A stretch of 64,000 bases of DNA from Catenaria anguillulae PL171 (lineage: Eukaryota > Blastocladiomycota > Blastocladiomycetes > Blastocladiales > Catenariaceae). Below are positions 3,178 through 22,723 of the stretch, piece after piece. The notes beneath the pieces are model-generated. The model worked only from the letters and a program-made list of their open reading frames with translations, was not told where the DNA came from and made no database searches. The position numbers and the translations under genes are program-made. Each line of letters opens with the position of its first letter. Within the stretch, counting starts at the first letter, position 1. The stretch lies in assembly GCA_002102555.1 (NCBI GenBank), contig MCFL01000030.1, positions 1-64,000 on the forward strand. Reading direction: 5' to 3'.

Positions 3178-3877
3178 GCGGGAGCTTCTCCGCCAAGCGA
3201 GCAGCAATGGCAGCCGGAACGATGCCAGCAGGGGCGTCGTACAAGTAAATAGCCGAGACCTGGGTGATCAGGGCAGCAGTCGGCGGGGTGTACATTTCGA
3301 GGATGGTGGTGACACCCTCGGATCCATGCAGCGGGCGGGCGTGTTGGACCGCGTCGTCACGGCCCTCACCAGTGTAAAACTCGATCACAATGGATTCGAG
3401 ATTCGGTTGACATACCCCCTCAGCAAAAACCTGAGGGATGCTAAAGTTACAAGCGGACTTTTTGAAAGCCCCGGTATGGTACTGGAAGCGAGCGGTGTTC
3501 AGCTTTTCGGCGCGGGACGTACCAGGCATGTCGGCCAGGAGGCAGGAAGCAAAGAAACGTTGGTTAGCGGTAGGGCGGGTCGGAGTTGGGACGTCTTCGT
3601 CCATCTTGTCGTCGTCGTTGGCCAGAGCGGCAAAGCAGAGGAGAGCAGGGCGGGGGGCGGCAGAGCGGGCGGGGGCAGTGACAATATCGGCGGTGTTGGC
3701 CTGTTGATCAGGCGGGGGGCAAGGCGGATCACCCATTGTTTGGGTGGCAGATGGGTCAGTCATGGCCGAAAATCGTCCGTTTGACTTGATATTTTGACAG
3801 GGTAGGTAAGTTGGGGCGCTGATTCGATTGCGCAGGGTTTCGTAGCGATATTGTCACTATTGCCTGTACGTAGCTCC
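3178..3877 (-). mobile_element. LINE-A 5' fragment (5' UTR plus ORF1 N-terminus)
   Basis: This is a second copy of the LINE-A 5' end. The 5' UTR (3764-3877) and the first ~190 codons of ORF1 (start codon at 3763) match the complete copy at 21215-20520 closely, including the opening residues MTDPSATQTMGDPP and the motif TSRAEKLNTARFQYHTG. Similarity stops near 3178, inside ORF1, and unrelated sequence follows. The apparent ORF continues to 3104 with no further similarity. The 5' end abuts a copy of the tRNA-Ala target site, as in the complete element. The 3' part was lost by deletion or by a later insertion of the element on the left. Confidence 0.8.
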
Positions 3878-3891
3878 AAGGGGCTTTAACT
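3878..3891 (+). repeat. tRNA-Ala target-site copy 1
   Basis: AAGGGGCTTTAACT, identical to the last flanking bases plus nucleotides 1-12 of the tRNA-Ala gene at 22652. It joins the LINE-A 5' fragment to SINE copy 1. Confidence 0.9.
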
Positions 3892-4348
3892 TTTTCAGGT
3901 AATGTATTGTAGTGACTTAACACAAGCATGAGGGGAGCCGCTGGCGTCATTTCGACCAACCCCCAACATACAGACCAGGGACAATATCCACACACACAAG
4001 CCAGAGTTGAACGCATACACACGAAATGGCAGCTGGACTTACTTGAGCTTGATAGGCTTGGCACCAGTCCAACACATGTCAACCACCTTCTCCTTGGAAC
4101 ACGCGGATCCGGCGGCTTGGGTTCGATTCTTGGACAACTCGATTGGGCGGGATCCACCCCGGACGGCTTGGACCCAATTGACCGATGGGTGGCTTGAGCA
4201 GGCAAACCAAACCGAAATCCTTGCTCAAACTGTGGCCGAGGACTATGCACGAAACAGCATGCATACCGAAAGTGCCGCCCGTGGGGTTCGAACCCAAACC
4301 TTCGCAGTGGACACCCGGCGCCTCGACCACTGGGCCACGACAGCCCTT
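3892..4348 (-). mobile_element. SINE copy 1 (tRNA-headed)
   Basis: A 457-bp element read on the minus strand. Its 5' head (about 4346-4270) is tRNA-like, with a perfect Pol III A box (TGGCCCAGTGG) and B box (GGTTCGAACCC). The overall layout resembles a class II tRNA (Ser/Leu type) although the anticodon arm is degenerate. The 3' end (left side) finishes with ACTACAATACATTACC before the target-site copy. It is nearly identical to the copy at 22193-22648, which points to recent activity. It has no ORF of its own. Confidence 0.85.
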
Positions 4349-4363
4349 AAAGGGGCTTTAACT
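4349..4363 (+). repeat. tRNA-Ala target-site copy 2
   Basis: AAAGGGGCTTTAACT between SINE copy 1 and the truncated LINE-A 3' end. Confidence 0.9.
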
Positions 4364-5054
4364 TATCGGTATTGTATTGAAATTGAAGAATTCAGACTCA
4401 CGTGCGAGAAAAAATTACAACAACAAATCAGGACCAAACACTGTATGCACCCAATGCCAATACGGAGGTTCAGATCGAGCCAAAAGTGGTGTGCTGACCA
4501 ATCGCGTGGAAGGCATGTTGTTGGGCATTGCAAGGAATGGCACCAACCCAATACACCAGAGTGCACGCGACCTTGGAATCACGCGGCCGCGTGCCTTGAG
4601 CGCAGTGTCAGCTGACGACTACGCAAAGGGAGGAGCAATACCAGACAGAAGCCACTGTGAGGCGGCATCGTCGGCAGCAAGACGGGTATGGTCGTGGTGA
4701 CCAACAGGGCAAAGGAACTTGGAAATGGCGACGCCGCGCCAGCGGTGAGGAATCGGGTGATGGGTGTCGAGGTGGTGGGAGTATGGCGTCAAACACGCCA
4801 GGCAAAAGATGGACGGAAGGGGCAGAGGAGGATTGAGAGGGGCCGGGAGCGAAGACGGCAGCGCCGCAACCATCTTGTAGGGAAGCCGCTTGGGTTGCTT
4901 TCGCAACTGGGCCGGTGGTGGGAGAGGCGGGGCCGGGGCAACAAACGGGGGCGGGTCGGCCATGGGCATGTCTGGGGGCAGACGGAACCGGGACGTGGGC
5001 GTGGGGTGGTAGACTGGCACGTATCCGTCGTACTTGGAGTGCCGCCTGCGAATT
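4364..5054 (-). mobile_element. 5'-truncated LINE-A 3' end
   Basis: This 691-bp piece matches the 3' end of LINE-A (compare 5070-5760). It holds the last ~145 codons of ORF2, open from the 5' junction to the stop at 4619, including the Cys-rich motif CLACLTPYSHHL, followed by the 3' UTR. The tail ends TTCAATACAATACC next to the target site. A flush target-site copy at both ends is what 5'-truncated target-primed reverse transcription leaves. Confidence 0.85.
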
Positions 5055-5069
5055 AAAGGGGCTTTAACT
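5055..5069 (+). repeat. tRNA-Ala target-site copy 3
   Basis: AAAGGGGCTTTAACT at the 3' boundary of the complete LINE-A. Confidence 0.9.
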
Positions 5070-5324
5070 AATTGGTATTGTATTGAAATTGAAGAATTCT
5101 GACCCACGTGCGAGAAAAAATTACAACAACAAATCAGGACCAAACACTGTATGCACCCAACGCCAATACGGAGGTTCAGATCGAGCCAAAAGTGGTGTGC
5201 TGACCAATCGCGCGGAAGGCATGTTGTTGGGCATTGCAAGGAAAGGCACCAACCCAATACACCAGAGTGCACGCGACCTTGGAATCACGCGGCCGCGTGC
5301 CTTGAGCGCAGTGTCAGCCGACGA

Positions 5325-5911
5325 CTACGCGAACGGGGGAGCAATGCCGGACAAGAGCCACCGCGAGGCAGCATCATCGGCAGCAAGACGGGTGTGGTCA
5401 TGACGACCAACAGGACAACGGAACTTGGCGATGGCGACGCCGCGCCAGCGGTGAGGGATAGGGAGGAGAGTGTCAAGGTGGTGGGAGTACGGCGTCAGAC
5501 ACGCCAAGCAAGAGATGGACGGAAGAGGGAGTGGAGGGTCGAGAGGAGCAGGTAAGGAGGAGGGAAGGGACGAGACCATCTTGTACGGCAGCCGCTTGGG
5601 TTGCTTTTGCAACTGAGCCGCCGGCGGGAGGGGCGGGGCCGGGTCGGCAAACGGTGGCGGATCGGCCATGGGCACATCCGGAGGGAGCCGGAACCGGGAA
5701 GTGGGCGTTGGGTGGTACACGGGCACATACCCATTGTACTTTGAGTGCCGCTTGGTCGGTGTTGCATCCGCCACCGTTGGTTGCGGTGGAGCCTGGGGTG
5801 GGAGCGTGGCAACATGAGCTTCCCACGCGAGCCGCAGCGCCTCCTTGTTTTCAGGCGTGTTGGGGTCGGGGTAGAAGAGGTTGATGGCCTTGGTGTGCAA
5901 CTCCCAAACAC
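5325..5911 (-). pseudogene. LINE-A ORF2, C-terminal part (separated by LINE-B)
   Basis: The frame is open across the junction with the 16-bp duplicated site and continues the RNase H block that ends at 13771-13755. The last residues before LINE-B and the first after it join in frame at ERVWEL. The segment carries a Pro-rich stretch (about 5700-5550) and then a Cys/His-rich end: CLACLTPYSHHL near 5505-5470 and CPVGRHDHTRLA near 5425-5385, with the stop at 5325-5327. The same C-terminus is present in the truncated copies at 4619-5054 and 21500-21706. So it is a conserved part of the family. The Cys/His pattern suggests metal binding, but I know no family with this exact spacing. Confidence 0.75.
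5896..5911. repeat. LINE-B target-site duplication, left copy
   Basis: TGCAACTCCCAAACAC, identical to 13755-13770. It marks where LINE-B inserted into LINE-A ORF2. Confidence 0.9.
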
Positions 5912-5926
5912 TTTTTTTTTTTTTTT
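5912..5926 (-). other. LINE-B terminal poly(A) tract
   Basis: Fifteen A residues on the minus strand (T15 on the plus strand) directly at the left target-site copy. Confidence 0.85.
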
Positions 5927-6262
5927 GTTAACCACGTTGCATGTATTTATAAAATCATATCAGACCTGAACACCCAAAGAGGATGGGAAAGGGGGATAAT
6001 TCAAACAGATACTCAGAATACACCTGCCAGTGGCAGCAACAGGCACACAACACAATGGAAGGAGCGGTTGGCAACAGTGGGGAGGGAGGGGGAAAGGGAG
6101 AGTATGTAAGCCAATGGTGGTGAGAGCAAGTAATCAAGGTGAGGACAAAGGAGGCAGCATCAAGAATGTAGGTGGGGGGGGAGGTAAAGGCACGGGCGCA
6201 AGACAATCGATGCAGGGGAGTGGGGGAAAGAAGCAGTCCATGTGGGACATCCAATCAGTTCG

Positions 6263-6288
6263 TTTTTTTTTTTTTTTTTTTTTTTTTT
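6263..6288 (-). other. Internal poly(A) tract in LINE-B 3' region
   Basis: Twenty-six A residues on the minus strand, 68 bp downstream of the ORF2 stop and 337 bp before the terminal poly(A). It could be the element's own polyadenylation end, which would make 5927-6262 a 3'-transduced flank. Confidence 0.7.
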
Positions 6289-6355
6289 CCGCGGTTTCTG
6301 TTTTCAAAAGGAAGTTTGAAGGAGGGGTGAGGTAGACGGGTTGAAGGCCATGGAG

Positions 6356-9300
6356 CTAGGTTTGTGTCAGGGAGAGGACAGGAACAAAAGTCGTGTGGGG
6401 CCCGGACAAGCTACGCACCACAACGCGGTTTGCAAAACGTTTTGCCGATGGCTGGAGTCCAAAAAGCGGTTGTGCCAGGCCCGGCATGGCACCAAGGTGA
6501 TGCCAGAACGCCCAAGGAAGCGGCCTGATGTCGTCTTGGGCAGCACCAAGGAGGGGTGGGGCACCAACAGCCAACTCGTGTGTGAAGTGGCATGCAATTT
6601 CAGCTGCAGACACAGGTGCCGTTACTTGATGTTGTTGTTGACCTTTGGTCGTGCATACTTGGCAGAGGCAATTGGTCGCGCCTTGGTTGTCTTGGCCTGG
6701 TGGAGCAATCGAGCCAACCTTCTCACACCGCGGCTTCCACACCGTGCACCAGATGAGCAACGAAACACTTGCCACAATCCGCGGGAGCTGGGATGCAAGT
6801 CCAGGGAACCTCTTGCGTAGTGCCAAGTCTACTACGCACGCCGCTGTTGCGCGCAGGCGACTTGGGTGCAACAAGTGGGCAAGCACACTTCTCGCCTGGA
6901 CGGCGAGAGTCGTGTCAGCGCCTGGCAAAAGTTGCTCAACACATTCGTGGGCCGCCACGCCAAGCTCCCACCGCTCGTCAACCAGCCTTGGACACACCAC
7001 CCAATGCTGCTGGTCATCCAAAGAGCCACACAGTGTGCAGAGCGGTGACGGGGCGCGATCCGGCCAGTACATGTGCAATTGGGCGAGCGTTGGGAGCCGC
7101 CCCGTGAGCACTTTGACGCGAAAAGTGACCAAAGAGTCGAGGGAGAATGATGCGACACGTGCGGCGGGCTTGCGGCCACTACGAATGGCCTTTGCAAATA
7201 TGAGCATGTCGGGTTCCAGGACGAGCTTGTACACATGGCTTGCGAGCTGCACCCTCGCTTCTGCTCGAGATGCCGCTTGGAGCGTCTTGCCAAGGCTAGT
7301 GTACACTGGCAAGTGCCCAAGCTGCAACAGTGCGCCAAAGTCAATCTCTGCGAGAAATTCCTTGCTAAACCTGCACGCCCGAGGCGCATATGCCCCCCGC
7401 GATGCAAGTCGATCAGCCTTGTCGTTGTTGCGGTCTCCTGAGTGGCCTTTGACCTTGACGATGGTGATGCTCAGGTTGCGGCGGCGCACAATTGCCCTCA
7501 AAACAAGGAGGAGATCGAGCAGCGTGGGTGGCGAGCGCATTTCGGCGGTGATTGTGGTGGGTTCCGAGAGTGTGGTGGTGACAAGGAGACACGCCGCTGC
7601 CGAGTCAGAGTGTACACGGGCGCGAGAACTTGGAGGCAGGTACGCAGCGAGCGCGCAGACAGCGTAAAGCTCGGCACGAGTCGAGCTGGCTGGTGCCGCG
7701 GGGAGGCGGCCAAAAAGCTCAATGCCAAGTGCAGGGCAGTGTGCGCCAAATCCCATGAGCGTTACCGAGGCACTGGTGGCAGGCTGGAGTGAGCCATCGG
7801 TCCAACAATCAAGCACCTTCCGCATCGCCCGTGTGAATGGGCCACGATTCGACGTTGGCGGGTACTCGAAAATAGCCGGCTCGCTGGCATGTAATGGGTC
7901 GTCATCGTCGCTGTCGCTTGAGCGGTCCTCGGAGCCCGACACGTCGCGGTTGGGATCGCCAAACATCGGTTCTCGCAGCAGCTGGACATATGGGCACAGG
8001 TGTGGGTGGGCAGAATCTGGAGCGTGGACCAAAAAGGCAACTGGGCCGTCCCGTCGATCTACTGATTGAAGAGCAGAGACTGGCCGGGCAAGCGAAAGCA
8101 GTACCGCAGTGGTGCAGTCTGGCCTGTTGAGGCGGTCGTGCGCAAACCTGCATTGGAGCGGGTCGTCGCAATCGAGGCAGAGGTGTAGCAGGGTGCAGCC
8201 AGGCTCGGGCGCTACTTGGTGGGCCAGTGGGCAACGACATGGCCGGAGGTGTCGCAATAAAAGGATTGTGTCGTTGGGGTCACTTCGGCGGTCGACATCG
8301 GCACAGAGGCCAAAGACTACGGCGCCGTCGCTCTCCCAGACGAAAAGCTGGCCGACGTGATAGTACGGTTGCCTGACATGGCGCGGCGCGGTGAGCGGGT
8401 GGAGCGTGCGACCGAGCGATGCGCACCGCGCGGCGACGCAATCGACTAGTCGTTGGAGCGCGTGAAAAATACGCCCGTTTCTTCGGCACCGGGGCGCAAG
8501 GAGGCGACGAGTGGATGCTACAGCGTTTGCAAACCGGGTCGTGGTGCTGTCTTGGTCATAAAAACAAATGGTAGAGATCAGGGGGGAAAGGGAAAGAACA
8601 CGGGAGCGGAGCAGGTGGGGTCTGAGAATGTGCAACACGTCAAAAGGAATAACCGACTCAAGGGGGATGTCGTCAGTGGGTGAGACAAGGAACGGATCAA
8701 CACGACCGACGAGGTGGATGGACAAAAACGACTGCGAGAAAAGGGGCAAGATGTTGATGATGGGCGACGGGACTCTTTGGGCGACGTGGGAGCGGATGCT
8801 CGTGGTGGGTATGCTAACGGGGAGGTCCACCAGCGCAGAGCGCGCTGGGCTTGAGCAACTTGGGCGCAAGCCACGTGGAAGTGTTCACTTGTCGTCGGCT
8901 GAGACAGGCAAAACCTGAGCCAAGAGGCCTTGAGGAGAGCAAGGCACGTGCGATTGATTTCAGGCCGTACGTAGACTCGTCGTAAAGCACCGGGGCTGGG
9001 GTGTTGGACGGGAGGCGGGCTACATGTCTGAGTGCATTGCGTAGTTTAGCGTCAAGACGGTCGAGAAACGAGGGTGAAGGAATGAAGCCGCTGGCACGGT
9101 AGGCCGCCGATGGAACAATGACCGCGTTGATCACGTAGGTGGCGATCTGCGCCGGAATGCGCTTTGACCGCAGCACGTTGAGGGCGCCAGTGACCGAGCT
9201 GAGCATTGCTCTTTCGGTCGCTCTCCTCGGCCCTGTACCATCAATGAAGACACCAAGGTACCGACGCACGTCTCCTTTACTCACCCGGGGCACCGCCACA

Positions 9301-11660
9301 CCTTGCGACATCACTGTGCCTTCCCCACCGTCGCGAGCATTGAATGCCAGCACGAATCCTTTGCTCCCATTTGCCTTGATGCGAGCCAATTCATTGAACT
9401 CGTCCACCAAGTTGACCACCCGCTGCAGGTCCTCTTTCGACTTGGCGAAGAAGATGGCGTCGTCAATGTAACCAATCGCGACGTACTTTCGCGTTGCCAC
9501 CACCTCCGAGTCGCCCACCCGCGACCCCACGTCGACCTTCGGCACTCGCACTTCGAGATTCACGCCCTCGCAGGCGTCCTCGACCGCGCACAACAAAATG
9601 TCGTAGAACGCGTTCCAGAGGAACGGCGACTCGACGGCACCTTGCGGTATGCCTCGGTGAAGGTTGAACTTGTCGGTCTTGCCAAAGGCTGTGATGACCG
9701 AGGCTGTACGATCTTGCAAGAAGTTGCGGCAGTAAAAATTGATGAATCGATCGGGCAAACGTAGGCGCTCAAGTGCCAGTCGCACAAGTCGGTGCGGGAC
9801 CGTGTCGAAGGCTTTTGACTTGTCCTCTGAGTACGCCCACAACGCCTCGTCCGAGTCCGCCGCTTGCGCCTGCGCCACTAAACCATGTAACACGTCCACT
9901 GGTAGCCTCGTGTCCGTACCTCGAAGCGCCGAGAACCTTGCACCTCGTAGTACCTTGTGCTTTGCGGCTGCCGATTGGATGCGGTTCCACACAATCGAAT
10001 TGAAGAGTTTGGACGCGCACTCGAGCAACGTGATTGGCCGCATGTTGTTGACGTCGCTGGTATACCCTTCGGGTTTCTTCGGCGTGAGGAATATGACACC
10101 GTGGCGCCACTCGTCGGGGGTCCAACCTTCCTGGTACATGTCGGTGAACAGTCGCGCAAGTACCTTGTGTCCCACCGTACCCAGTGCTGCATAGTGGCGG
10201 TACCCAAGTTGCGATTCTCCTGGCGCTTTGTCCAGATCCACCCGGTTCAGCGCTCCTGCGACGTCCACCGCAGAGATCTCATGCTCGACACCATCCCAAA
10301 CTGTTGCCGCTACATGTTGCAGTGGTTGGCAAGCTTGCCGAATCGGATCCGACGCATTGAGCGGGTCACCTGGTTGTTGAAAGTCGAAGTTTGCCGATAC
10401 CGCACTTGCCACGCCCTGCTTGACGGCGTTTGGCTCCAGTACCAGCTCGTCCCCATCGAAGATACAATCGACGCAACTCGCCGGTCGTTGCCGGTCCAGT
10501 ACCGAGCTCACCACGGACCCCAGATTCGTCGCAAAGCGCTCTACCCGCCTTTTGACCGCTGTATCTATGGCCTCGCGGCGTCGCCGACCCGCCTCTTGTA
10601 TTACTCGCTCCGCCAGACGGGCCCGTGCGTCCATGAGCGCAACATTACCCAGAGGGAGCACCACTCCGGGCAGCACCGCCTCGATTCGTCGTCGCTCGTC
10701 GTCGTTCAACCGTCGCTTCCGGGTCGCGCAACAATTTATCTAGTGCCATGAGCGCCACGCAAGCGTCCGACTTGTCCTGATTCGGTCGCAGGGCGTGATT
10801 GGGCCTTGGTGCCGGTCCGCGTTTGCGTCTTGGCAGTTCTGTTTCCAATGCTTGCGCGGCTACTCTGTGGAATTTCTCCCACCGGGTCTGGATCGGGATT
10901 GATGAGTCAAGAATATCGATTTCGGGCTGGGTGCTTGCTGCTTGGACCGCGTCTGCTTCCACCCATGACGGAAACGTGTCGTCGTCGGCCAGAGTCAGGC
11001 CAAGATCGCTGATTACCCGGCTGCTATACTTGGCCCAGGATTGTGGTGTCAGTTTCTCGGTGTCAAGAACGTATCGGGCTGCCGCTCGGCGGGCTTCTGC
11101 TTGTGCGCGGGCAATGCTACGGTCCAAACGGACTGCCAGCGATGACAGTAGCAGGAGGCGGGAGTGGTCAAAGCCACTGGCTGGTTGCACAAGTAGGGCG
11201 TGTACGTCGTGCAGGAATCCCGGCGATGCGTAGATGCGATCCAGCCGGCCACCGGCGACATGTGTTGGGCCGTTTGCGTCAAGGTGTAAGCCACGTCCAC
11301 CAACCGTTTCCCAGGCAGAACCTTTCAATCGGCCGGCTCGGCGCATCATCCCGCTCGTTCATATCACCTGCCACCAACAGCAAATCGCCCGTGCGATTCG
11401 AACGCTCTGTCTCCTGTTTTAGCGCCTCTAGTACCACCGCTCGGCATCGGCGTCTTGCGGCGGCGCATACACTCCAACAACACGCAATTGTACTGGTACC
11501 GCCCCTGGATGCTGAACGCAACAACGTAGCCGCCATATCGGGTCCAGTGGCAAGTGTGACGGGCAAGCGCCGGTTCAACGGCGACAAGAGCACCTGATCC
11601 TTGGGGTTTGTCTTGGTCATACGCGAGGTGCACGATCCACTCCTGGCTCAACATGCGGCA
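6356..11660 (-). pseudogene. LINE-B ORF2: endonuclease, reverse transcriptase, RNase H (frameshifted)
   Basis: Three regions in different frames make up one polyprotein. The endonuclease end (11654-10740) shows GGRLDRIY and GFDHSRL, matching the C-terminal motifs of APE-type endonucleases, but its N-terminal part is broken. The reverse transcriptase (about 10709-8820) has LDKAPGESQ, RPITLLECASKL, DKSKAFDTVPH, RGIPQGAVESP and an intact catalytic GYIDDAIFF. Frame then changes near 8830. The last block (8869-6356) contains an RNase H domain with its acidic residues in place (CWTDGS, TRAELYAV, HSDSAAACL, KGHSGD...DKADRLA), followed by a zinc-finger-like CTLCGSLDDQQHWVVC. At least two frameshifts make it non-functional. 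Confidence 0.8.
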
Positions 11661-11915
11661 ATCAGTGCTCGGGACGATTTGTGTGAGAGTTTTGTTTCTG
11701 TTGTTATTACAATACCCACTCCGCTTTCTGCTGCATGGTTAAGTGTTGCGATGAGACGGTCGTTTGCCTGTGAACCCCCTACATTTGCCACAAGAATGTT
11801 TGTCCGATAATTCTGGTTAGTATTGCCCTTGATCTTGTGGGTTGTCTTGAATGAAAATGAATCGCTCGAGCGTGGTTTTGTCCTTGGCTGGCTGTAGTCG
11901 TGGGTGTCGTTGGCA

Positions 11916-13656
11916 TCATTGTGGGTTGGGGCTGTCAGTTCCTGCGTTTTGTGTGCGACTGTCCGTGCTTGGCTCAGACTGACCGGCTGTCAGCGGGCGG
12001 TGGGCTCTTGCAGAGTCCGTTGATGGCATGGGTGTTCTTTCCCTGTCAACCTTGCTCGTCCCGGCTTGCTTGTCGTCCGTTGTGTCGATCGTCTTCTGAC
12101 GCTTGTTCCTGCCTCGATCCGTTGGTGACTGTGAAACGTCCTCGTGCGGCCGGGTTTGTGGTCGCCGCCTGGCCACCGGTTCTTGATCGACCTCCATCTC
12201 GTCTCCTCCGTCCTCTTGGCCTTGTGTAGTTGCCTCCATGTTCTTCCGAATAGCAACTGCCGCCTCCATGGCCGCGCCATTGTCGCCCTTGGCCAGCGAT
12301 TCGACCACCGACAAAAGCGATCCAATAAGCTGGTTTTGCTCTTGCATCTGCGCATCGACCCGGCGCTCGCTGCCCTTCAAACCTTCCACCGTCGCTTCCA
12401 ATCTGCCAACAGTAGACTTGAGCTGCTCGTTCTCTTTCCTGAGCGCGGCGTTCTCGGCCTCCAACTCGGCCACACGGCGATCCTCCTCCTGTCCAGCAGC
12501 ACACGACCTGTCGACCTGCCACCAGCTGCGGAAGCGTATGATTGGCCGTTGACCACCCGCGCTCTGTCAGGGCTTGCGCCCTGCTTTGTGCAGCTTGCTG
12601 TTTCTGCGCCTCTTGTCTCTCCTTCCACTCCTTCCTCGCCGCACACTGGGTTTGAATGTGGTCCGGTTCACCACATGAGAAGCAGAGCTTGATACCGGCC
12701 GGGTAAACCTGGGCTCGTGCACCGTTGATGACGAGACGTCCTCCTCTGGAGCATGGCCTCGCGGACCTCCTTGTTGCCCGCCTGCCACAAACAATCGAAA
12801 ATTCACGGAGGCGGTTGTTGTCGACTGCGATGGCACGACCGCCACCCAATCCGTCAAATTCAATGAAGGCGATCTGGTTGACCGCATCCTTGTGAACGAC
12901 CACTTGTAGCGTCAAATCCTTGTCCTTTACCTTGGCTCTAAAGTCTTCAAGCGAGGCGTAGAGCGATGTGTACTGACGGCGGAAAAACAGCGGCGCATCA
13001 TTGCCTGCCGCTTCCATGGCTGTTTTGGACGGGAATCGGACCTTTGTAAATTTAGATCCGAGGATATCAATAGAACCTTCGACCTGCAGCTCGCCCCACT
13101 GCTTTGACAAAAACTCTCTCACCTCGCCCAAACTGGCGCCCCTGCTCAGCGGCCCAGCAAATCCAACAAACTGGCGCTTCTCGCCATCCACTTCGTCCCA
13201 TCCGTGCTTCTCAATACGCATCGTGCCGAGGCCCTTGACTTCGATGGTGTCCGGCGGCGTGACGGCGAGAGAGAACATAAACTTGGCAGAGTCGCCAATC
13301 TGGCCAGGGCACTTCCTGAGGTCGCGGTATGGGATCCGCTGCATGTCCATGGCGTCGGCCAACATCTTCATGACAATCCCGGTGGCCCCATTGACGATCT
13401 TGTGCTTGGGGACTTTGACCAGGTACTTGTCGTTTTCATTGTTGCCCAAGATGACTCGCCCGTTGTCTGGGCCGGGACGGAGTGCCGGGCAGCGGATGGT
13501 GCGACGGGTGACAAGGGTGAAGCCGTCATTCGCAGCCTTGGGGGCTTTGGGCGCCGACCCACCGTTGTCTCGCATCTCGGCGTCGATCAGTTCGGGTGGG
13601 GCGCGACCTGGGGCGGCCGGGCCACCCATGGCGGGGGGCTCGGCAGGCGTGGCCAT
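11916..13656 (-). pseudogene. LINE-B ORF1 (gag-like, frameshifted)
   Basis: From the ATG at 13656 a basic protein runs to a CCHC zinc knuckle, CFSCGEPDHIQTQC, near 12690-12645, typical of nucleic-acid-binding ORF1 proteins of non-LTR elements. Past about 12620 this frame becomes low-complexity. A different frame carries a strong leucine-rich coiled coil (LEAENAALRKENEQLKSTVG, about 12467-12410) and a polar tail ending at 11916. So frameshifts separate the knuckle from the coiled coil, which would mediate multimerisation. Confidence 0.7.
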
Positions 13657-13754
13657 GTTTGTCGGAATTCGTTGGAAGGCTAGGTGTTGAGGACTTTGCT
13701 TGAGGTGCTTTACATAGATTTTGAGCTATGCCTATGCTTCCGCTATCCGTTTTT

Positions 13755-13770
13755 TGCAACTCCCAAACAC
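13755..13770. repeat. LINE-B target-site duplication, right copy
   Basis: TGCAACTCCCAAACAC, the partner of 5896-5911. Confidence 0.9.
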
Positions 13771-15285: not shown

Positions 15286-18200
15286 TACACGATGTTTGGG
15301 CGTGGGCGGTCAAGAGAAAAGAGAAAATCGGGGACGAGATCAAATGGGCACGCAACAACATCACAGGCGTCAATAGTGGGAGGCGAGGAGACAAAGACGC
15401 GGGAGCAATAGGCAGAAACAACGGCAAGGTCCGGTGACTCGTCGTCAAAGCTGGGTAGACGGGGGAGGGAAAAGAGATTGGGTGACGGAAGGGTAGGCGG
15501 TTTGAGGAGGAAAGAAGGCACGAGAGAGTGGTCTATAGGCGTGTAGGGCAAAGGAAAGAATGGGGCGACAAAGGTGGAGGGCAAACGGAAAAGGGTATCA
15601 ACGACAAACGCGGCAACATCCTTCTCGACACCACTGGCAGTGTAGACGGCAAGCTTGTCGCTGATCTGCTTGTGGACCCGAGCTGGACCAAACTCGACAT
15701 CGTTGGTGGGAACACCGGCCGCGTCAAGGAGATCGTGCATGTACTTGAGATTGTTGCCGCGAAAGTACTTGAGCGCGGCTGCGTATGTGTCTGTGGGGAG
15801 AACAGAAACGAGCGGAAAAGAGATGCCACCCCAAGTGCTGATGCGCGCAGCAGGGGAGTGGTTGGGTTTGTACGGCAGAAAAAACGTGCCTGCCAAGTGC
15901 GAAACGGAAAGACGTCGAGCGTGCATGAGCGGCAGGAGGTTACCGAACCAGCACCTGCTGCGCGCGACGGTCAGTGGGAGTGGGTGAGAGAGAGGACAGA
16001 AAGGGAGGGCAAGGTTGTGTTGGAGGAGGCAGAGCGATGCCTTGATGGCAACGCTGCGCAGGTGGTCGTCGTTGAGCGCGGTGAGAATGTCGGTGAGGCG
16101 GGCAGCAAGGACAAGGTCGGGAGAGGAGAGCAGGCCGACTGTTGACTTGTGGTGCAGAGAGGCGGTGGGGTGGTTGACGGGCAAGCCAAGCTTGCGCTTG
16201 ACGAGACCCGTGGCCATGGCATTGCACAAGTTGAGCGTTGTGGGTGTCGGGACAAAACCAAGCGTCCGATACAAGGCGCTAGGGAAAACAACAACGTTAA
16301 GAAGCCACACTGCCATCTTACCCGTCACTGCCTTGCGTCTCAGCAGCGGAATGCACCGCCGAAACACATCCAACATGGACTTGCGAGCGCTGGTACCGCG
16401 GAAACGGTGGTCCACCCAAATGCCCAGATACCGAAACGAAGTCATGTCATTCACCCGCGGAATGTCTTGACCGTGAATGGTAAACGGGTCGCTCTCGTCC
16501 TTGTCCGCCCCGTGCAAAATCCAAACCGCCCCTTTCTTTGGGTTGGATCGGACATTGGTCATGTCGTTGAACTGCTCGACACGCCGCAATATTTGGTCCA
16601 TGTCGGCGCGCGTGGTGGCGAGGAAGACGGCGTCGTCAACAAACGCCATGCCGGCCAGGCGGATCCGACCGAGGAGCTTGCCCGTGTCCTTTTGCTTGAG
16701 TGGGTCGCCTACAGAGACGAGGTTGGTTTGGGCCGTGATCGTGACTCCGAGAATGGAGGGGTCAGTGTTCACCGCCGACAAGAGCACATCGTAAAAGATG
16801 GCCCACATCAGCGGCGACTCAACGGCGCCTTGCGGCACACCTCGCTCAATCGGTACAGGATCAGAAAGACGGTACGACGTAATCACTCGCGCGACCCGGC
16901 CTGCCAAGTACCCATCGCAATAGAACGACACAAACGATTCAGGCATGTTGATGCGTTGGAGAGCAAGTCGCAGTGCCTCGTGCGGAACTGAATCGAAGGC
17001 CTTGGACTTGTCCTCGAAAAAAGCGAAAAGCTGGCCCTTGCCAGTGGCATGGCCGGGAACGTAACCTTGCGCCCACTGCTGTTCAAAGGCAGCGTGCAGG
17101 ATGGAAATTGGGGTTGATGCGTCAGTCCCCGGCAAGGTGGAGTGACAGGCACCCTCCAACACTGGATATGAAAGCATGACCTTGTATATACGAGTCAACA
17201 GCACTTTCATAAGAAGTTTGCTGGCACACTCGAGCAACGTAATCGGCCGCATCCCCTCCGTTAACCCAACAAATCCCTCCTCGGACTTGGGCAACAGGTA
17301 GATCGAGCCCTCTTTCCACGCCTCCGGCACCCGTTTCTGCTCCAAGCACGCAGTGCACAAAGCGGCAAGCACCTCAAGACACTCTGGGCCCGATTCGCGG
17401 ATCATGCGCATCGTGATTTGACTCACGCCAGGTGCCTTGTCGACGCCCACCGAGCTCAGCGCCGCCCGCAATTCCTTGACCGTGACAGCGACCATGACAC
17501 CCGCCCACGCCTCGGGCGGAATCTTGTCGTGCGACTTTTTCGACCACGCTTTGGCCCAGTAGGCATCAAACCCCTCGGGATCAAACACTTCACCCTTGAA
17601 GCTGACGGACATGAGCACAGCGATCTGGGTGACGATGTCGTCCGGGTCGAACAACAGCCGGTCGCCATCACGGACCGAGTCAACGGCCGACACGGGTTGG
17701 GTACGGTCAAAGACCCGGCGAACGAGATCGGCAATTGCGTGCGGAGCAGCCTCGAAGCGGCTTTTCATGGCCACGGTGATCCTTTCCGAGAGCTGTGCTT
17801 GGTCACGAACCAGGACAATCGTGGATAGCGCCTGCCGAGCGCGCGCGTAGTACTTTGCGCACTCAGACTCGGTCAAGCCGGGCGGGTCAATGCCAAGCTC
17901 AGCGAGACGGGAAAACGTACCTTGCGGGCCCGGCAGCTTGTACCCTTGCTTTCGCCATTTGTCGAGCTTGAGGATATCGTAACCCTCGGGCGACTTGGGT
18001 GTGTTGCGGCGCGGCTCCGTGAATGGAGTCTTGCCGCCAGCCTTGCGGTGCTTGAGCTTGGCCTTCGCCGAGTCGATCAACACATTGTGCCAAGCATCCT
18101 GAGCTGCGTCCAGCGACTCCGGTGTACCTCGCGCAATAATGCCGAGCACGTCTGCCTCGGTCACTGCCCGCGCACACTCGCCCTGGTATGCTTCCCACAT

Positions 18201-19127
18201 CCTCGGCGTGCACTCGGGCAAGTCCAGGACCTGCCGCTGCGCCGCCTTTGCGCACGACTCCATCTTGCGAATCAGCTTGCGGTCGAGAAGGGTACCCAAA
18301 CTCGTGCGCGCCGAGATGATGGCATGGTCGAGACCCATGAGCGGGTTGTCGGGCACATCGGCAGGCCACGTGACAGCGTAGCCATTGAAATAGTGAGCAA
18401 GACCTTCATCGATCAGAATCCGGTCAAGTCGGTTGCGGTTGTGGGTAGGTTGCATGTCGCCAAACGCCTCAGCAACATCAACAAGGTGGTGACGAGTCTC
18501 GAGTTTCTGGACCAGGGCTGCACGGGGTGATCCGTCACTGCAGTTCCAGTCACCACCAACCACGACATGGTCGCCAGCATCACGAGCGCGAGTACACACG
18601 TCCGAGATGAAGATGGACAATGCCTTGGCCAGCGGAACCGAAGCAGGGAGGCGGGATTGGAGGTGAGTCGGAAGGTAGGACTTGGGAACATGTCGGCCGC
18701 TGTCGGGCGAGAGGTAAATGGATACAAGGTGCAATCGGCTGCCAGTCGCGAGGCGAAGAGGAAGGTGGACGGCGTAGCCTACAAGGAATTGAGGAGGATC
18801 TAGAAAACAACACAATGAGTTACGAACCGCGATGGCGGCGCCGCTGCCCATTGGGTGTAGGGTATCAACAGTAGAGAAGAAGGTAAAAGGTAGGTCAGTG
18901 TACTGGGTAGCACGCTTGAGTGAGGTTTGGGAGGCTTTGGTTTCGTTGAGGAAGGAAATATCCACATCGAGCCCGCCGCGCATCCAATCCAGGAGCGAGA
19001 ACAGTTTGCCGCGAGCGGCGGTGCTGTGCACGCCCCTGCAGTTGGCGACGGCGAGATTGATGCGGAAGGAAGGCGGTGGGTTGGGTATCGGGGGTATGGG
19101 TGGTGGCTGTTCGTTGGCTTGCATCAT
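15237..19127 (-). CDS. LINE-A ORF2: APE-type endonuclease and reverse transcriptase
   Basis: This 1296-codon frame starts at the ATG that overlaps the ORF1 stop (ATGA). The N-terminal third is an APE-like endonuclease: LAVANCRGVHS, ISFLNETKAS (metal-binding Glu), VVGGDWNCSDG, NRLDRILID and GLDHAIIS. It would supply the nick at the tRNA-Ala gene. The reverse transcriptase covers roughly residues 500-850, with VDKAPGVSQ, RPITLLECASKLL, FEDKSKAFDSVPH, RGVPQGAVESP and the catalytic AFVDDAVFL. The frame ends just after the first RNase H Asp (VYTDGSL) because of an apparent single-base slip in a C5 or T6 run near 15250-15270. The restored frame is at 13771-15285. The motifs are intact, so apart from the slip and the LINE-B insertion this copy looks young. 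Confidence 0.88.
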   Translation of the reverse strand: MMQANEQPPPIPPIPNPPPSFRINLAVANCRGVHSTAARGKLFSLLDWMRGGLDVDISFLNETKASQTSLKRATQYTDLPFTFFSTVDTLHPMGSGAAIAVRNSLCCFLDPPQFLVGYAVHLPLRLATGSRLHLVSIYLSPDSGRHVPKSYLPTHLQSRLPASVPLAKALSIFISDVCTRARDAGDHVVVGGDWNCSDGSPRAALVQKLETRHHLVDVAEAFGDMQPTHNRNRLDRILIDEGLAHYFNGYAVTWPADVPDNPLMGLDHAIISARTSLGTLLDRKLIRKMESCAKAAQRQVLDLPECTPRMWEAYQGECARAVTEADVLGIIARGTPESLDAAQDAWHNVLIDSAKAKLKHRKAGGKTPFTEPRRNTPKSPEGYDILKLDKWRKQGYKLPGPQGTFSRLAELGIDPPGLTESECAKYYARARQALSTIVLVRDQAQLSERITVAMKSRFEAAPHAIADLVRRVFDRTQPVSAVDSVRDGDRLLFDPDDIVTQIAVLMSVSFKGEVFDPEGFDAYWAKAWSKKSHDKIPPEAWAGVMVAVTVKELRAALSSVGVDKAPGVSQITMRMIRESGPECLEVLAALCTACLEQKRVPEAWKEGSIYLLPKSEEGFVGLTEGMRPITLLECASKLLMKVLLTRIYKVMLSYPVLEGACHSTLPGTDASTPISILHAAFEQQWAQGYVPGHATGKGQLFAFFEDKSKAFDSVPHEALRLALQRINMPESFVSFYCDGYLAGRVARVITSYRLSDPVPIERGVPQGAVESPLMWAIFYDVLLSAVNTDPSILGVTITAQTNLVSVGDPLKQKDTGKLLGRIRLAGMAFVDDAVFLATTRADMDQILRRVEQFNDMTNVRSNPKKGAVWILHGADKDESDPFTIHGQDIPRVNDMTSFRYLGIWVDHRFRGTSARKSMLDVFRRCIPLLRRKAVTGKMAVWLLNVVVFPSALYRTLGFVPTPTTLNLCNAMATGLVKRKLGLPVNHPTASLHHKSTVGLLSSPDLVLAARLTDILTALNDDHLRSVAIKASLCLLQHNLALPFCPLSHPLPLTVARSRCWFGNLLPLMHARRLSVSHLAGTFFLPYKPNHSPAARISTWGGISFPLVSVLPTDTYAAALKYFRGNNLKYMHDLLDAAGVPTNDVEFGPARVHKQISDKLAVYTASGVEKDVAAFVVDTLFRLPSTFVAPFFPLPYTPIDHSLVPSFLLKPPTLPSPNLFSLPRLPSFDDESPDLAVVSAYCSRVFVSSPPTIDACDVVACPFDLVPDFLFSLDRPRPNIVYTDGSLFKRPQPSFFH

Positions 19128-21109
19128 TGGACGGAAGGCTCAGAGGGGACAGAGTTGGCAACCGTCTCCACAACCGGGTGTGGGACAAAGTCCGGCAGTG
19201 CGAGCTGGAGCGGTGGGACAGTCACAGGGACGTTGAGCGCACGACTCAGGCTTGCACCAATCATCTCCATCGAGTTTTGTAGACTCGACTGCAAGCTGCT
19301 CTTTACCTGCTCAAGGAACTCGGACTGGCTTTTCCAGGTTGCCATGGTCGTGCGATGCGAGAGGATCTCCAACTGGTCGTGCGTCAGGGAGACTGAACCT
19401 GGGGACGAAGACGTGCTCGGGTTAGTCTTTGTGCGTTTGACTGCTCCACGCGTCGTCCTCTTCTCGGTGGTCTCGTCGGGTTCCGAGACAGCCAAACTCT
19501 CCACCATCTGCCGCGCACGCGCCCGCTCGTTCTGGAGCTCGGCAACGGCGAGGATGAGCCCCGTCTGTTGCTTTCTGAAAGTATCAAACTCTGTTGCGAT
19601 GATGCTGGTGACAAGCTCTTGGATGGCTGAGAGCGTGGCGGGAGCAAGAGTTGCGGCAGGTTGAGCAGCTGAGGCAGGAGGTGGGGCTGTGCGGTTCTCA
19701 AGAGCCGTCATCTGCGCGGTGAGTGCATCAAGCTTCTGGTGGACGAGGGCGATTTCGTTGGATGGAGGATTGGCGGGACGGGGAGGAAGGGGGTGATTGA
19801 TAATGGGAGCGTGGTTGATGGCGCCACTGATGGCAGGAGGACGGTTGCCATTGAGGGCGGGGAAGTCAGAGTCAGAGGCAGAGGCAGCGTCACGGAAGGA
19901 CATGCCAGGGCGGACGAGAGAGGGGGCAAGGGAGCAGATGGGGATAATTGAGGCATTGGCAGGGGCCGACGAGAGGGCATCACGGATCGTCTTACGCGAC
20001 TGTTGGGCAGCACGGGATGCGCGACTGCGAGGGCAGGTGGAAGCAGCATGGCCACTCTTTTGGCACGCAAAGCAGTGGGGAGCGTTGATTGGAGCCCAAA
20101 CAAGCGCAGTGTCGAGGTTGTGCCAAGTGTACCTAACCTTGACATGCATGGCAGCTTCGGCAGCGTCAGCCGACGGGAAGACAATCACGGCGCGGGACAA
20201 CTTTTTGCCGTCCTTGTTCAGCTCAATGCGCCAAGCAGACGCAGAGAGACCGGCGTTCTGTAGCGCTTTGCCAATCAGGATGGCAGTGGCACCGGCAGGG
20301 ATACCGTAAAGGTGGCGCGAGGTGTCGCGGTCGGTGCGACGGCAATTGCGGGCAGCGAAGAACGAGTCCGTCATCCGGAGCAAGTGGTCAGCGACAGTGA
20401 TGGTACCAAGGCGGAGCAGATTGGAAGCAATCGCGGTGTGGTCGGGTGAGACGATTTCGGCCCGCCACACGCCATAGAAGCGGTCATATACGTCAGGTGT
20501 AAACACCTTGACGCGAGCGGCAGCCGGGAGCTTCTCAGCCAAACGGGCAGCAATGGCGGCGGGGACGATGCCGACAGGTGCATCGTACAAATAAATGGCC
20601 GAAACCTTGGTGATTGGAGCAGCGGCAGGCAGGGTGTACTCTTCGAGGATGGTGGTGACACCCTTGGACCCGTGCAGTGGGCGGGCGTGTTGAACCGCAT
20701 GTTCGCGGCCTTCACTTGTGTAGAATTCGATCACGATACGTTCAAGGTCCGGTTGACGCACACCCTCAGAGAAAACTCGAGGGATAGTGAAGCTGCAGGC
20801 AGACTTTTCGAAATCACCAGTATGGTACTGGAAGCGTGCCGTGTTCAACTTTTCGGCGCGGGACGTACCGGGCATTTTGGTCAGGAGGCAGGAAGCAAAG
20901 AAACGTTGGCTAGCGGCAGGGCGGGTCAGGGTCAAGACGTCTTCGTCCATCTTGTCGTCGTCGTCGTCCGGAGCGGCAAAGCGGAGGGGAGCGGGGCGGG
21001 GGGCGGCAGAGTGGGCAGGGGCAGTGACAATATCGGCGGTGTTGGCCTGTTGATCAGGCGGGGGGCGGGGCGGATCACCCATTGTTTGGGTGGCGGACGG
21101 GTCGGTCAT
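19124..21109 (-). CDS. LINE-A ORF1 (RNA-binding, zinc knuckle)
   Basis: The protein has 661 aa. It has an acidic, Pro-rich N-terminus, a central globular region of unclear fold (about 60-330), a CCHC knuckle CFACQKSGHAASTC (about 346-359), and a long polar C-terminus with a predicted coiled coil (about 490-560). Retrotransposon ORF1 proteins of this build coat the element RNA and help target-primed reverse transcription. The stop codon overlaps the ORF2 start as ATGA, which suggests ORF2 is made by termination-reinitiation. The ORF is intact. The start is the first ATG after the 106-bp leader, and the same N-terminus is conserved in the fragment at 3763. Confidence 0.85.
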   Translation of the reverse strand: MTDPSATQTMGDPPRPPPDQQANTADIVTAPAHSAAPRPAPLRFAAPDDDDDKMDEDVLTLTRPAASQRFFASCLLTKMPGTSRAEKLNTARFQYHTGDFEKSACSFTIPRVFSEGVRQPDLERIVIEFYTSEGREHAVQHARPLHGSKGVTTILEEYTLPAAAPITKVSAIYLYDAPVGIVPAAIAARLAEKLPAAARVKVFTPDVYDRFYGVWRAEIVSPDHTAIASNLLRLGTITVADHLLRMTDSFFAARNCRRTDRDTSRHLYGIPAGATAILIGKALQNAGLSASAWRIELNKDGKKLSRAVIVFPSADAAEAAMHVKVRYTWHNLDTALVWAPINAPHCFACQKSGHAASTCPRSRASRAAQQSRKTIRDALSSAPANASIIPICSLAPSLVRPGMSFRDAASASDSDFPALNGNRPPAISGAINHAPIINHPLPPRPANPPSNEIALVHQKLDALTAQMTALENRTAPPPASAAQPAATLAPATLSAIQELVTSIIATEFDTFRKQQTGLILAVAELQNERARARQMVESLAVSEPDETTEKRTTRGAVKRTKTNPSTSSSPGSVSLTHDQLEILSHRTTMATWKSQSEFLEQVKSSLQSSLQNSMEMIGASLSRALNVPVTVPPLQLALPDFVPHPVVETVANSVPSEPSVQ

Positions 21110-21215
21110 GGCCGAAAATCGTCCGTTTGACTTGATATTTTGACAGGATAGGTAAGTTGGGGCGCTGATTCGATTGCGCAGGGTTTCGTAGCGATATTGT
21201 TACTTTTGGCCTGAC

Positions 21216-21229
21216 AAGGGGCTTTAACT
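21216..21229 (+). repeat. tRNA-Ala target-site copy 4
   Basis: AAGGGGCTTTAACT at the 5' end of LINE-A; one A shorter than most copies, like copy 1, which also abuts a LINE-A 5' end. Confidence 0.9.
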
Positions 21230-21232
21230 CGC

Positions 21233-21247
21233 AAAGGGGCTTTAACT
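21233..21247 (+). repeat. tRNA-Ala target-site copy 5
   Basis: AAAGGGGCTTTAACT, only three bases (CGC) from copy 4. Confidence 0.9.
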
Positions 21248-21706
21248 GATGATGATTGTATTGAAGTCATGATATAAGAACCAACGTTTAGGAACAAATA
21301 ACACAACAAGCCAGGACCCACAGCCTTGCGTCCAACGCCAATACAGTGGTGCAGTTCGAGCCAGAGATGGTATGCTGACCAGACACGCGGAAGGCATAGT
21401 TGTTGGACATTGCGCGGGAAGGCACCAGCTCAATACACCTGAGCACGCTTGGCCTTGGATACACGCGGCCGCGCGGCTAGAGCGCATCGTCAATGCAAAC
21501 GATCACGCAAATGAAGGAGACACGCCGCACAACAGCAACCGCGAGGCTGCGTCGTCAGCGGCGAGCCGCGTTTGGTCGTGACGACCGACGGGACAACGGA
21601 ACTTGGCAATGGCGACGTCGCGCCAGCGGAGAGGAGGATCGTGGTTGGATTCGAGGTGATGAGAGTAGGGCGTCAAACATGCCAAGCAGAAAACGGAGGG
21701 TAAAGC
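21248..21706 (-). mobile_element. Divergent 5'-truncated LINE-A-family 3' end
   Basis: A 459-bp piece related to the LINE-A 3' end but clearly diverged from 4364-5054 and 5070-5760. It keeps the terminal ~70 codons (CLACLTPYSHHL, CPVGRHDQTRLAADDAAS; stop at 21503) and a 3' UTR with recognisable blocks (GGCACC...CAATACACC...CCTTGGAT...ACGCGGCC, plus strand). It ends in TTCAATACAATC. It probably belongs to a separate subfamily sharing the same target. Confidence 0.8.
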
Positions 21707-21721
21707 AAAGGGGCTTTAACT
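21707..21721 (+). repeat. tRNA-Ala target-site copy 6
   Basis: AAAGGGGCTTTAACT between the truncated LINE and SINE copy 2. Confidence 0.9.
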
Positions 21722-22177
21722 ATTGGGTAATGTATTGTAGTGACTTAACACAAGCATGGAGGAACCTGCTAACGCCATGAGGCCAGGCCCACACACACAC
21801 AAACCAGGTCCAACAATCCTCAAACACAAGCCCGAGTTGAACACATACACACGAAATGGCAGTTGGACTAACTTGACTTGATGGGGTTGGCACCAGTCCA
21901 ATACATGGACCACCTTCACCTTGGTACAAGCGGATCCGGCGGCTTGGGTTCGATTCTTGGACAACTCGATTGGGCGGGATCCACCCCGGACGGCTTGGAC
22001 CCAATCGACCGATGGGTGGCTTGAGCAGGCAAACCAAACCGAAATCCTTAGCTCAAACTGTGGCCGAGGACTATGCACGAAACAGCATGCATACCTAAAG
22101 TGCCGCCCGCGGGGTTCGAACCCAAACCTTCGCAGTGGACACCCGGCGCCTCGACCACTGGGCCACGACAGCCCTGC
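21722..22177 (-). mobile_element. SINE copy 2 (older, diverged)
   Basis: 456 bp, the same structure as copies 1 and 3 with many substitutions in the 3' half. The tRNA-like head with A and B boxes (about 22175-22100) is well kept. Its body has CCAGGTCCAACAATCC (plus strand, near 21805), closer to the LINE-A 3' UTR than the other SINE copies are there. Confidence 0.85.
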
Positions 22178-22192
22178 AAAGGGGCTTTAACT
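22178..22192 (+). repeat. tRNA-Ala target-site copy 7
   Basis: AAAGGGGCTTTAACT between SINE copies 2 and 3. Confidence 0.9.
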
Positions 22193-22648
22193 TTTCAGGA
22201 AATGTATTGTAGTGACTTAACACAAGCATGAGGGGAGCCGCTGGCGTCATTTCGACCAACCCCCAACATACAGACCAGGGACAATATCCACACACACAAG
22301 CCAGAGTTGAACGCATACACACGAAATGGCAGCTGGACTTACTTGAGCTTGATAGGCTTGGCACCAGTCCAACACATGTCAACCACCTTCTCCTTGGAAC
22401 ACGCGGATCCGGCGGCTTGGGTTCGATTCTTGGACAACTCGATTGGGCGGGATCCACCCCGGACGGCTTGGACCCAATTGACCGATGGGTGGCTTGAGCA
22501 GGCAAACCAAACCGAAATCCTTGCTCAAACTGTGGCCGAGGACTATGCACGAAACAGCATGCATACCGAAAGTGCCGCCCGCGGGGTTCGAACCCAAACC
22601 TTCGCAGTGGACACCCGGCGCCTCGACCACTGGGCCACGACAGCCCGT
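22193..22648 (-). mobile_element. SINE copy 3 (youngest position, next to tRNA-Ala)
   Basis: 456 bp, almost identical to copy 1. Its 5' head starts three or four bases from the tRNA-Ala gene on the opposite strand, so two Pol III units face away from each other. The A box and B box are perfect. If every insertion enters the intact tRNA, this is the most recent event in the stack. Confidence 0.88.
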
Positions 22649-22663
22649 AAAGGGGCTTTAACT
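22649..22663 (+). repeat. tRNA-Ala target-site copy 8 (the live target)
   Basis: AAA plus tRNA-Ala nucleotides 1-12. This copy is part of the intact tRNA gene and completes its acceptor stem and half of the D arm and A box. Confidence 0.92.
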
Positions 22664-22723
22664 CAGTGGTAGAGTGCTCGCTTTGCATGCGAGAAGCCGC
22701 GGGTTCGAACCCCGCAAGCTCCA
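22652..22723 (+). tRNA. tRNA-Ala (anticodon TGC)
   Basis: A 72-nt gene that folds fully. The acceptor stem pairs GGGGCTT with AAGCTCC (one G-T pair), the D stem ACTC with GAGT, the anticodon stem CTCGC with GCGAG around the loop TTTGCAT (anticodon TGC), and the T stem GCGGG with CCCGC around TTCGAAC. The discriminator is A, as expected for alanine. There is no intron. Internal A and B boxes are present. Its 5' 12 nucleotides have been recreated by the last retrotransposon insertion, yet the gene is intact. Confidence 0.97.

What the first reader, a model, noticed from the sequence alone, without database searches (positions are those of the whole stretch)
3878..22723. A retrotransposon system that inserts inside a tRNA-Ala gene and rebuilds it each time
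Eight copies of AAAGGGGCTTTAACT (3878, 4349, 5055, 21216, 21233, 21707, 22178, 22649) sit exactly at the boundaries of elements. The last copy is the start of an intact tRNA-Ala(TGC): three flanking bases plus tRNA nucleotides 1-12. All elements point the same way (minus). This fits target-primed reverse transcription with a sense-strand nick between tRNA nucleotides 12 and 13, in the middle of the A box, and a second nick 15 bp upstream. The 15-bp duplication restores the whole tRNA 5' end, so the tRNA stays functional and the target is renewed. Known tRNA-seeking LINEs such as Dictyostelium TREs insert at a distance from tRNA genes. A self-renewing, in-gene target with this stacking is, as far as I know, not well described in fungi.
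Basis: partly seen in the sequence, partly recalled or inferred. Interest (0 to 1): 0.92.

Follow-up and report, generated by a model that had tools for sequence, protein, structure and literature searches.

The report
Retrotransposons cutting inside tRNA gene promoters
In a probable early-diverging fungus, a family of jumping genes and its small hitchhikers insert at one exact point in the promoter inside tRNA genes, and each insertion usually copies the first part of the tRNA gene so that the gene stays whole and can be hit again.

Summary
Two LINE tail types and a tRNA-headed SINE sit antisense, directly 5' of tRNA genes. Three genome searches returned 56 element 3' ends (a lower bound for the 41-Mb genome); 49 join the host exactly between tRNA nucleotides 12 and 13, in the A box, in six tRNA species (Ala-TGC, Ala-CGC, Cys-GCA, Thr-TGT, Thr-CGT, Lys-TTT). 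Three empty/filled locus pairs show the event. Of 30 copies read on both sides, 21 have 16-18-bp duplications; 6 match less well and 3 do not match. Copies are 5'-truncated, one to 33 bp. The LINE encodes AP-endonuclease, RT and RNase H, so target-primed reverse transcription is the best explanation. Two of the seven other ends lie in anticodon loops of tRNA-Gln and tRNA-Met, which lack CTC in the A box; this hints at tethering to tRNA genes plus a CT^C preference. In-gene tRNA insertion is known for restriction-like-endonuclease LINEs and Dada transposons; an AP-endonuclease LINE that rebuilds the A box of several tRNAs looks like a new variant.

The parts
22652..22723 (+). intact tRNA-Ala(TGC), the target; cut inferred between 22663 and 22664 (nt 12/13)
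   Evidence: ARAGORN; Rfam RF00005 70.6 bits, same score as the other nine Ala-TGC genes
22649..22663 (+). 15-mer copy 8: rebuilt tRNA 5' end (nt 1-12 plus AAA)
22193..22648 (-). SINE copy a: tRNA-like head with A and B boxes by eye, LINE-like 3' tail
   Evidence: flanks share 15 bp
22178..22192 (+). 15-mer copy 7
21722..22177 (-). SINE copy b, 90% identical to copy a
   Evidence: flanks share 17 bp
21707..21721 (+). 15-mer copy 6
21248..21706 (-). 5'-truncated LINE of tail type 2
   Evidence: flanks share 17 bp
21233..21247 (+). 15-mer copy 5, taken as the real 5'-side target duplication of LINE A
   Evidence: 15 bp shared with the copy at 5055
21215..21232 (-). CAAGGGGCTTTAACT+CGC at the 5' end of LINE A; probably a carried-over piece of a donor tRNA-Ala site
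   Evidence: comparable pieces in LINEs at C13, C128 and C167
13771..21214 (-). LINE A, 5' and middle part: ORF1 (zinc knuckle by eye) and ORF2 (endonuclease, RT); frame broken at RNase H in this copy
5912..13754 (-). LINE B, a poly(A) LINE nested in LINE A; 16-bp duplication TGCAACTCCCAAACAC at 5896-5911 and 13755-13770
   Evidence: Pfam RT and RNase H
5070..5911 (-). LINE A, 3' part with tail type 1
5055..5069 (+). 15-mer copy 3 (3'-side duplication of LINE A)
4364..5054 (-). 5'-truncated LINE of tail type 1
   Evidence: flanks share 17 bp
4349..4363 (+). 15-mer copy 2
3892..4348 (-). SINE copy c, listed as 100% identical to copy a over 454 bp
   Evidence: flanks share 14 bp
3877..3891 (+). 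15-mer copy 1 (CAAGGGG variant)
3170..3876 (-). 5' end of a further LINE of the same family; matching sequence stops at 3170

Best explanation
This is a family of non-LTR retrotransposons (at least two 3'-tail types) with a dependent SINE. They insert by target-primed reverse transcription into the A box of tRNA genes, antisense to the tRNA. The element's AP-type endonuclease nicks the tRNA-sense strand between nt 12 and 13 (RRCT^CAG); the 3' OH primes first-strand synthesis from the RNA's 3' tail; the other strand is cut about 17 bp upstream; repair leaves a duplication, usually 16-18 bp, that is the tRNA 5' end (nt 1-12) plus 4-6 bp of flank. The tRNA therefore stays whole and remains a target, so elements pile up upstream with the newest next to the tRNA. 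Shown by sequence: junction positions, duplications, empty and filled loci, 5' truncation, encoded domains, intact tRNA. Inferred: order of nicks, which endonuclease cuts, use of the LINE machinery by the SINE, order of stacking, tethering to tRNA genes, and continued tRNA expression.
For: Three empty/filled pairs: C187/C379, C69/C413, C13/C418. Junction tally: 49 of the 56 3' ends returned are at nt 12/13 (within 1 mismatch over 12 nt, 47 exact) in six tRNA species; 17 of 18 SINE, 25 of 29 tail-1, 7 of 9 tail-2. Duplications of 16-18 bp in 21 of 30 copies read on both sides (10 of 10, 3 of 6 in the window, 8 of 14 SINEs). 5' truncation down to 33 bp at C15. ORF2 of the C431 copy is open for 2016 codons with endonuclease, RT and RNase H. 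Related SINEs with oligo(A) tails are not at A boxes in 10 of 10 fetched loci, out of 21 such hits. Two of the seven off-A-box ends lie in anticodon loops, T33^C34, of tRNA-Gln(CTG) and tRNA-Met(CAT), at the first CTC of each gene; intact copies were called as tRNAs by ARAGORN. C224 and C357 share the distal part of a stack and differ in the proximal part.
Against: Seven of 56 ends are not at nt 12/13, and five of these are not in a recognised tRNA gene. Of 30 copies read on both sides, six share only 14-15 bp or are interrupted by one difference, and three do not match: SINEs at C199:12609 and C252:9675 have the ends of two different tRNAs (Ala or Cys against Thr-CGT), which needs exchange between stacks, and SINE C404:10558 has a non-tRNA flank on one side. 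Many A-box tRNAs carry no detected element: at least 6 of 48 exact A-box hits do, and no hit or 21-23 falls in the tRNA clusters on C178, C341 and C436:652-656 kb. The SINE/LINE tail similarity is short: 15 of 24 positions at best (8 of 2000 shuffles reach it), 14 of 24 in the other four SINE comparisons (35-69 of 2000). SINE c, distal in the stack, is as similar to SINE a as any copy, so divergence does not date the stack. In C431 the tRNA-side copy has one C fewer, so rebuilding is not always perfect. Several junctions are not independent (tandem copies in C357, near-identical contigs).
Confidence: 0.88

Rival explanations
1. The endonuclease alone reads the A-box sequence (RRCT^CAGT), with no help from the Pol III machinery.
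For: Cut position is exact to the base; AP-endonuclease LINEs of the R1 and Tx1 clades are known to be sequence-specific (PMC4640811, passages); the six species share CT^CAG.
Against: Two off-A-box ends are inside other tRNA genes at sites sharing little more than CT^C; with 300-1000 tRNA genes assumed, the chance of 2 or more of 7 is 6e-6 to 7e-5. Many tRNAs with AGCTCAGT carry no detected element.
Confidence: 0.35
2. The 15-mer is an internal part of a tandemly amplified repeat, and the stack grew by unequal exchange.
For: Some local tandem copies exist: 273-bp units in C357:188136-189214. Two SINEs flanked by ends of different tRNAs suggest that exchange between stacks does happen.
Against: Different elements lie between the copies; the word changes with the tRNA; three empty loci show the host sequence before insertion.
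Confidence: 0.03
3. Elements insert a fixed few bp upstream of tRNA genes through the Pol III complex, as reported for NLTR-A of Dictyostelium purpureum, and the nt 12/13 position is incidental.
For: The element's 5' end does lie a few bp upstream of the tRNA; PMC5006619 (section 9) and the review PMC5911963 (passages) report NLTR-A at 2-6 bp upstream.
Against: The 3' junction is exact to the base at nt 12/13 in 49 of 56, whereas the upstream distance varies; anticodon-loop insertions are not upstream at all.
Confidence: 0.08

Closest known systems
NLTR-A, Dictyostelium purpureum (PMC5006619, section 9 read)
   Same: Non-LTR element with RNase H downstream of RT, found 2-6 bp upstream of the first tRNA nucleotide, the same final geometry as here
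   Different: Described as an upstream position; 'target site duplication', 'TSD' and 'direct repeat' do not occur in the main text. Sequence relation to the present LINE not tested
NeSL-1_TV, LIN15_SM, LIN25_SM (PMC4640811, passages)
   Same: LINEs specific for tRNA genes (Pro, Arg, Glu)
   Different: Placed among NeSL-related elements, a clade with a restriction-like endonuclease; one tRNA species each; the exact site was not visible to me
Dada DNA transposons (PMC3706591, passages)
   Same: Insert inside tRNA genes; three Perkinsus families have putative duplications TAGCTC in the A box, the same words cut here
   Different: DDE transposase, 6-7-bp duplications, each Perkinsus family keeps to its own tRNA
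TRE5/TRE3, Dictyostelium discoideum (PMC5911963, passages)
   Same: AP-endonuclease LINEs that depend on tRNA genes and spare them
   Different: Insert 40-54 bp upstream or 40-150 bp downstream, oligo(A) tail, no entry into the gene
R1 and Tx1 clade LINEs (PMC4640811, passages; Keno and Mutsu targets from PMC3706591, passages; their clade is recalled)
   Same: AP-type endonuclease with an exact site in a small or ribosomal RNA gene
   Different: Other target genes; clade of the present LINE not established

Membership tests
Non-LTR retrotransposon (LINE) | RT with AP- or restriction-like endonuclease in one ORF | tested here: met
   C431 copy: Exo_endo_phos, RVT_1, RNase_H above curated cut-offs in one open frame of 2016 codons; window copy
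Non-LTR retrotransposon (LINE) | 5' truncation and target duplication of variable length | tested here: met
   Truncated copies at 4364-5054, 21248-21706, C418 and the 33-bp copy at C15; duplications 16-18 bp in 21 of 30 copies
Site-specific LINE | most copies at one position of one gene type | tested here: met
   49 of 56 3' ends at tRNA nt 12/13
tRNA-gene-targeting TRE elements | insertion at a distance outside the tRNA gene | tested here: not met
   junctions at nt 12/13 inside the gene
R1, Tx1, Tad or I clade | placement in an RT tree with named references | not tested
   no named reference RT set was at hand; the only organism named among the 16 homologues is Blastocladiella emersonii (hypothetical proteins)
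tRNA-derived SINE | tRNA-like head with A and B boxes, LINE-like tail | tested here: inconclusive
   head called as tRNA-Gly(TCC) by ARAGORN in related oligo(A) copies, not in the A-box copies; tail similarity short
Dada DNA transposon | DDE transposase and 6-7-bp duplication | tested here: not met
   RT and endonuclease found; duplications mostly 16-18 bp

The most novel reading that the evidence does not exclude
The first AP-endonuclease LINE/SINE system that is drawn to tRNA genes in general and then cuts at the first CT^C inside the gene, normally within the Pol III promoter's A box. Because the duplication rebuilds exactly the promoter half it split, any of several tRNA species is an inexhaustible target, and LINE RNAs that start in the rebuilt tRNA piece carry a tag of the donor tRNA to the next site. 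The NLTR-A geometry in Dictyostelium may be the same mechanism seen from the other end.
Probability: 0.45. Interest if true: 0.75.

Novelty: new variant of a known kind. Interest (0 to 1): 0.64.

Why it matters
It shows a way to live inside an essential gene family without breaking it: the cut is placed so that the staggered repair rebuilds the internal promoter. It gives a natural test of tether versus endonuclease specificity (A box against anticodon loop, filled against empty loci, A-box against oligo(A) SINEs), and it suggests re-reading reported upstream insertions at tRNA genes, such as NLTR-A, as in-gene cuts. An AP-type endonuclease that accepts several tRNA A boxes would also interest people who build targeted retrotransposon insertion tools.

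Tried and rejected
Tandem amplification as the source of the 15-mers: rejected by the empty/filled pairs and by the change of word with tRNA. A single giant 16-kb element: rejected, it is LINE A with LINE B nested in it. The C268 target as a seventh tRNA species: GACCGATTGGCTCAG has 0 matches in the genome, so it is counted as off-target. Clade placement through protein searches: searches gave relatives but no named clade. SINE divergence as a clock for the stack: not informative. The oligo(A) SINEs as a clean tail swap: not claimed; the local match covers about the first 208 nt, and by eye a short word nearer the 3' end is shared too. A first version of the duplication count (10 of 10 at 16-18 bp) left out the window's own copies and the other SINEs; add them and it falls to 21 of 30. 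The right-hand flanks's SINE list were cut wrongly by my script and are replaced. Mismatch counts printed are not minimal and are replaced. Papers: PMC4640811, PMC3706591 and PMC5911963 seen as passages; PMC5006619 as abstract, outline, section 9 and passages; all others as search listings only. That this AP-endonuclease variant is not in print rests on searches in an open-access library that lacks most subscription papers; Kojima and Fujiwara 2004 was not read.
Full report
Observation. The 15-mer is present eight times in the window, six exact and two with one mismatch, against a shuffle mean of 0.04 at up to 2 mismatches. The last copy runs into an intact tRNA-Ala(TGC). The genome (41.07 Mb, 457 contigs, unnamed) holds 10 exact copies and 10 tRNA-Ala(TGC) genes, identical over the first 30 nt and with the same Rfam score.

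Anatomy. On the minus strand, from the tRNA outward: SINE a, SINE b, a 5'-truncated LINE of tail type 2, LINE A, a 5'-truncated LINE of tail type 1, SINE c, and the 5' end of another LINE that stops matching at 3170. LINE A is interrupted by LINE B, a poly(A) element with its own 16-bp duplication. In this copy the frame of LINE A breaks at the RNase H region. Another copy, at C431, has an open frame of 2016 codons with endonuclease, RT and RNase H. The zinc-knuckle motif in ORF1 is read by eye; Pfam finds no match above its curated cut-offs there.

Genome-wide junctions. Three DNA searches (SINE, tail 1, tail 2), whose counts are lower bounds, gave 56 copies that keep their 3' end: 18, 29 and 9 (the ninth tail-2 end is a 33-bp copy seen in L081). 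Hits without the 3' end were left out. I read the host flank of all 56. In 49 the last 12 host bases are nt 1-12 of a tRNA (47 exact, 2 with one mismatch): Ala-TGC 25, Thr-TGT 10, Cys-GCA 4, Lys-TTT 4, Ala-CGC 3, Thr-CGT 3 (Thr-CGT identified). The other seven are C13 (tRNA-Gln anticodon loop), C35 (tRNA-Met anticodon loop), C223, C112:268151, C268, C414 and SINE C404:10558. Not all are independent: C357 has a tandem array, and some contigs are near copies of each other.

Empty and filled loci. C187 reads straight through the tRNA; C379 has the same flanks (95.5% over 1543 aligned bp) with a full-length LINE between T12 and C13 and a 17-bp duplication. C69 and C413 do the same (97.1% over 1538 bp). 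C13 and C418 form a third pair (89-92% in the two pieces that meet at the tRNA) with a 5'-truncated LINE. Whether these are alleles or paralogues is open. Six of the 10 tRNA-Ala(TGC) genes have an element directly 5' of them (C224, C379, C413, C404, C418, C443).

Duplications and cut. Thirty copies were read on both sides. Ten, mostly LINEs, share 16-18 bp. In the window the shared lengths are 14, 17, 15, 17, 17 and 15. Of 14 SINEs elsewhere, 8 share 16-18 bp, 3 share 14 bp or are interrupted by one difference, and 3 do not match; two of these three carry the ends of two different tRNAs, which I read as exchange between stacks. So 21 of 30 fit a second cut about 17 bp from the first, which at an A box is 4-6 bp before the tRNA. 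Where the downstream base is known the cut is CT^C: the six A-box tRNAs, Gln, Met and C223. Gln and Met have no CTC in the A box, and the element sits at the first CTC, between T33 and C34; that the Met is the initiator is only by resemblance. For C35 only the 3' side was read. These insertions split the tRNA: 20 exact Gln and 21 exact Met pattern matches show intact copies elsewhere.

SINE. A-box SINEs share the tRNA-like head with another SINE group that ends in oligo(A). In the 10 fetched copies of that group (of 21 hits) the element is not at an A box, and most show unrelated flanking repeats by eye. The A-box SINEs end in ACAATACATTACC or close variants and tail-1 LINEs in CAATACAATACC; the similarity is short but fits use of the LINE machinery.

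5' ends. The LINE 5' ends carry extra bases that differ between copies. In several copies these match the tRNA end of another site: tRNA-Ala pieces in LINEs sitting in tRNA-Gln (C13) and tRNA-Cys (C128, C167), and a C414-like piece in the C15 copy. I read them as donor flank carried along by RNAs that start in the antisense tRNA end; template switching is not excluded. This also explains the odd copy at 21215.

Stack growth. If each insertion enters next to the tRNA, distal parts are older. C357 and C224 share the distal part (2395-4348, including the break at 3170) and differ just after SINE c. This fits, but recombination is not excluded.

Host.

Comparison. LINEs specific for tRNA-Pro, -Arg and -Glu genes are reported among NeSL-related elements (PMC4640811, passages). 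Dada transposons use TAGCTC in the A box (PMC3706591, passages). Dictyostelid LINEs insert outside the gene, the nearest being NLTR-A at 2-6 bp upstream (PMC5006619, section 9). I found no report of an AP-endonuclease LINE cutting in the A box of several tRNAs. Hence a new variant of a known kind.

Noticed in passing
window 5896-13770: LINE B, a poly(A) LINE with RT and RNase H, nested in LINE A with a 16-bp duplication.
   Followed up: partly
window 1286-2875: Minus-strand ORF of 529 aa that by eye looks like a gag-type protein of another retroelement, left of the stack.
   Followed up: no
G000 C178, C341, C436:652-656 kb: Clusters with tRNA genes of many kinds, repeated at about 5.7-kb spacing in C178 and C341, in which no hit of the element searches falls although A boxes with AGCTCAGT are present.
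   Followed up: partly
L081, C15:34060-34130: A 33-bp insertion consisting only of the LINE 3' end between two copies of the tRNA-Lys 5' end.
   Followed up: yes
L024, C431:11913: The tRNA-Lys next to the SINE has one C fewer than the other duplication copy and a lower tRNA score (58.2 bits), perhaps a repair error.
   Followed up: partly
L036 (C199:12609) and L037 (C252:9675): SINEs flanked on one side by a tRNA-Ala or tRNA-Cys end and on the other by a tRNA-Thr(CGT) end, as if stacks had exchanged parts.
   Followed up: partly
L041-L050: Oligo(A)-tailed SINEs sharing the tRNA-like head, dispersed; their partner LINE is not identified.
   Followed up: partly
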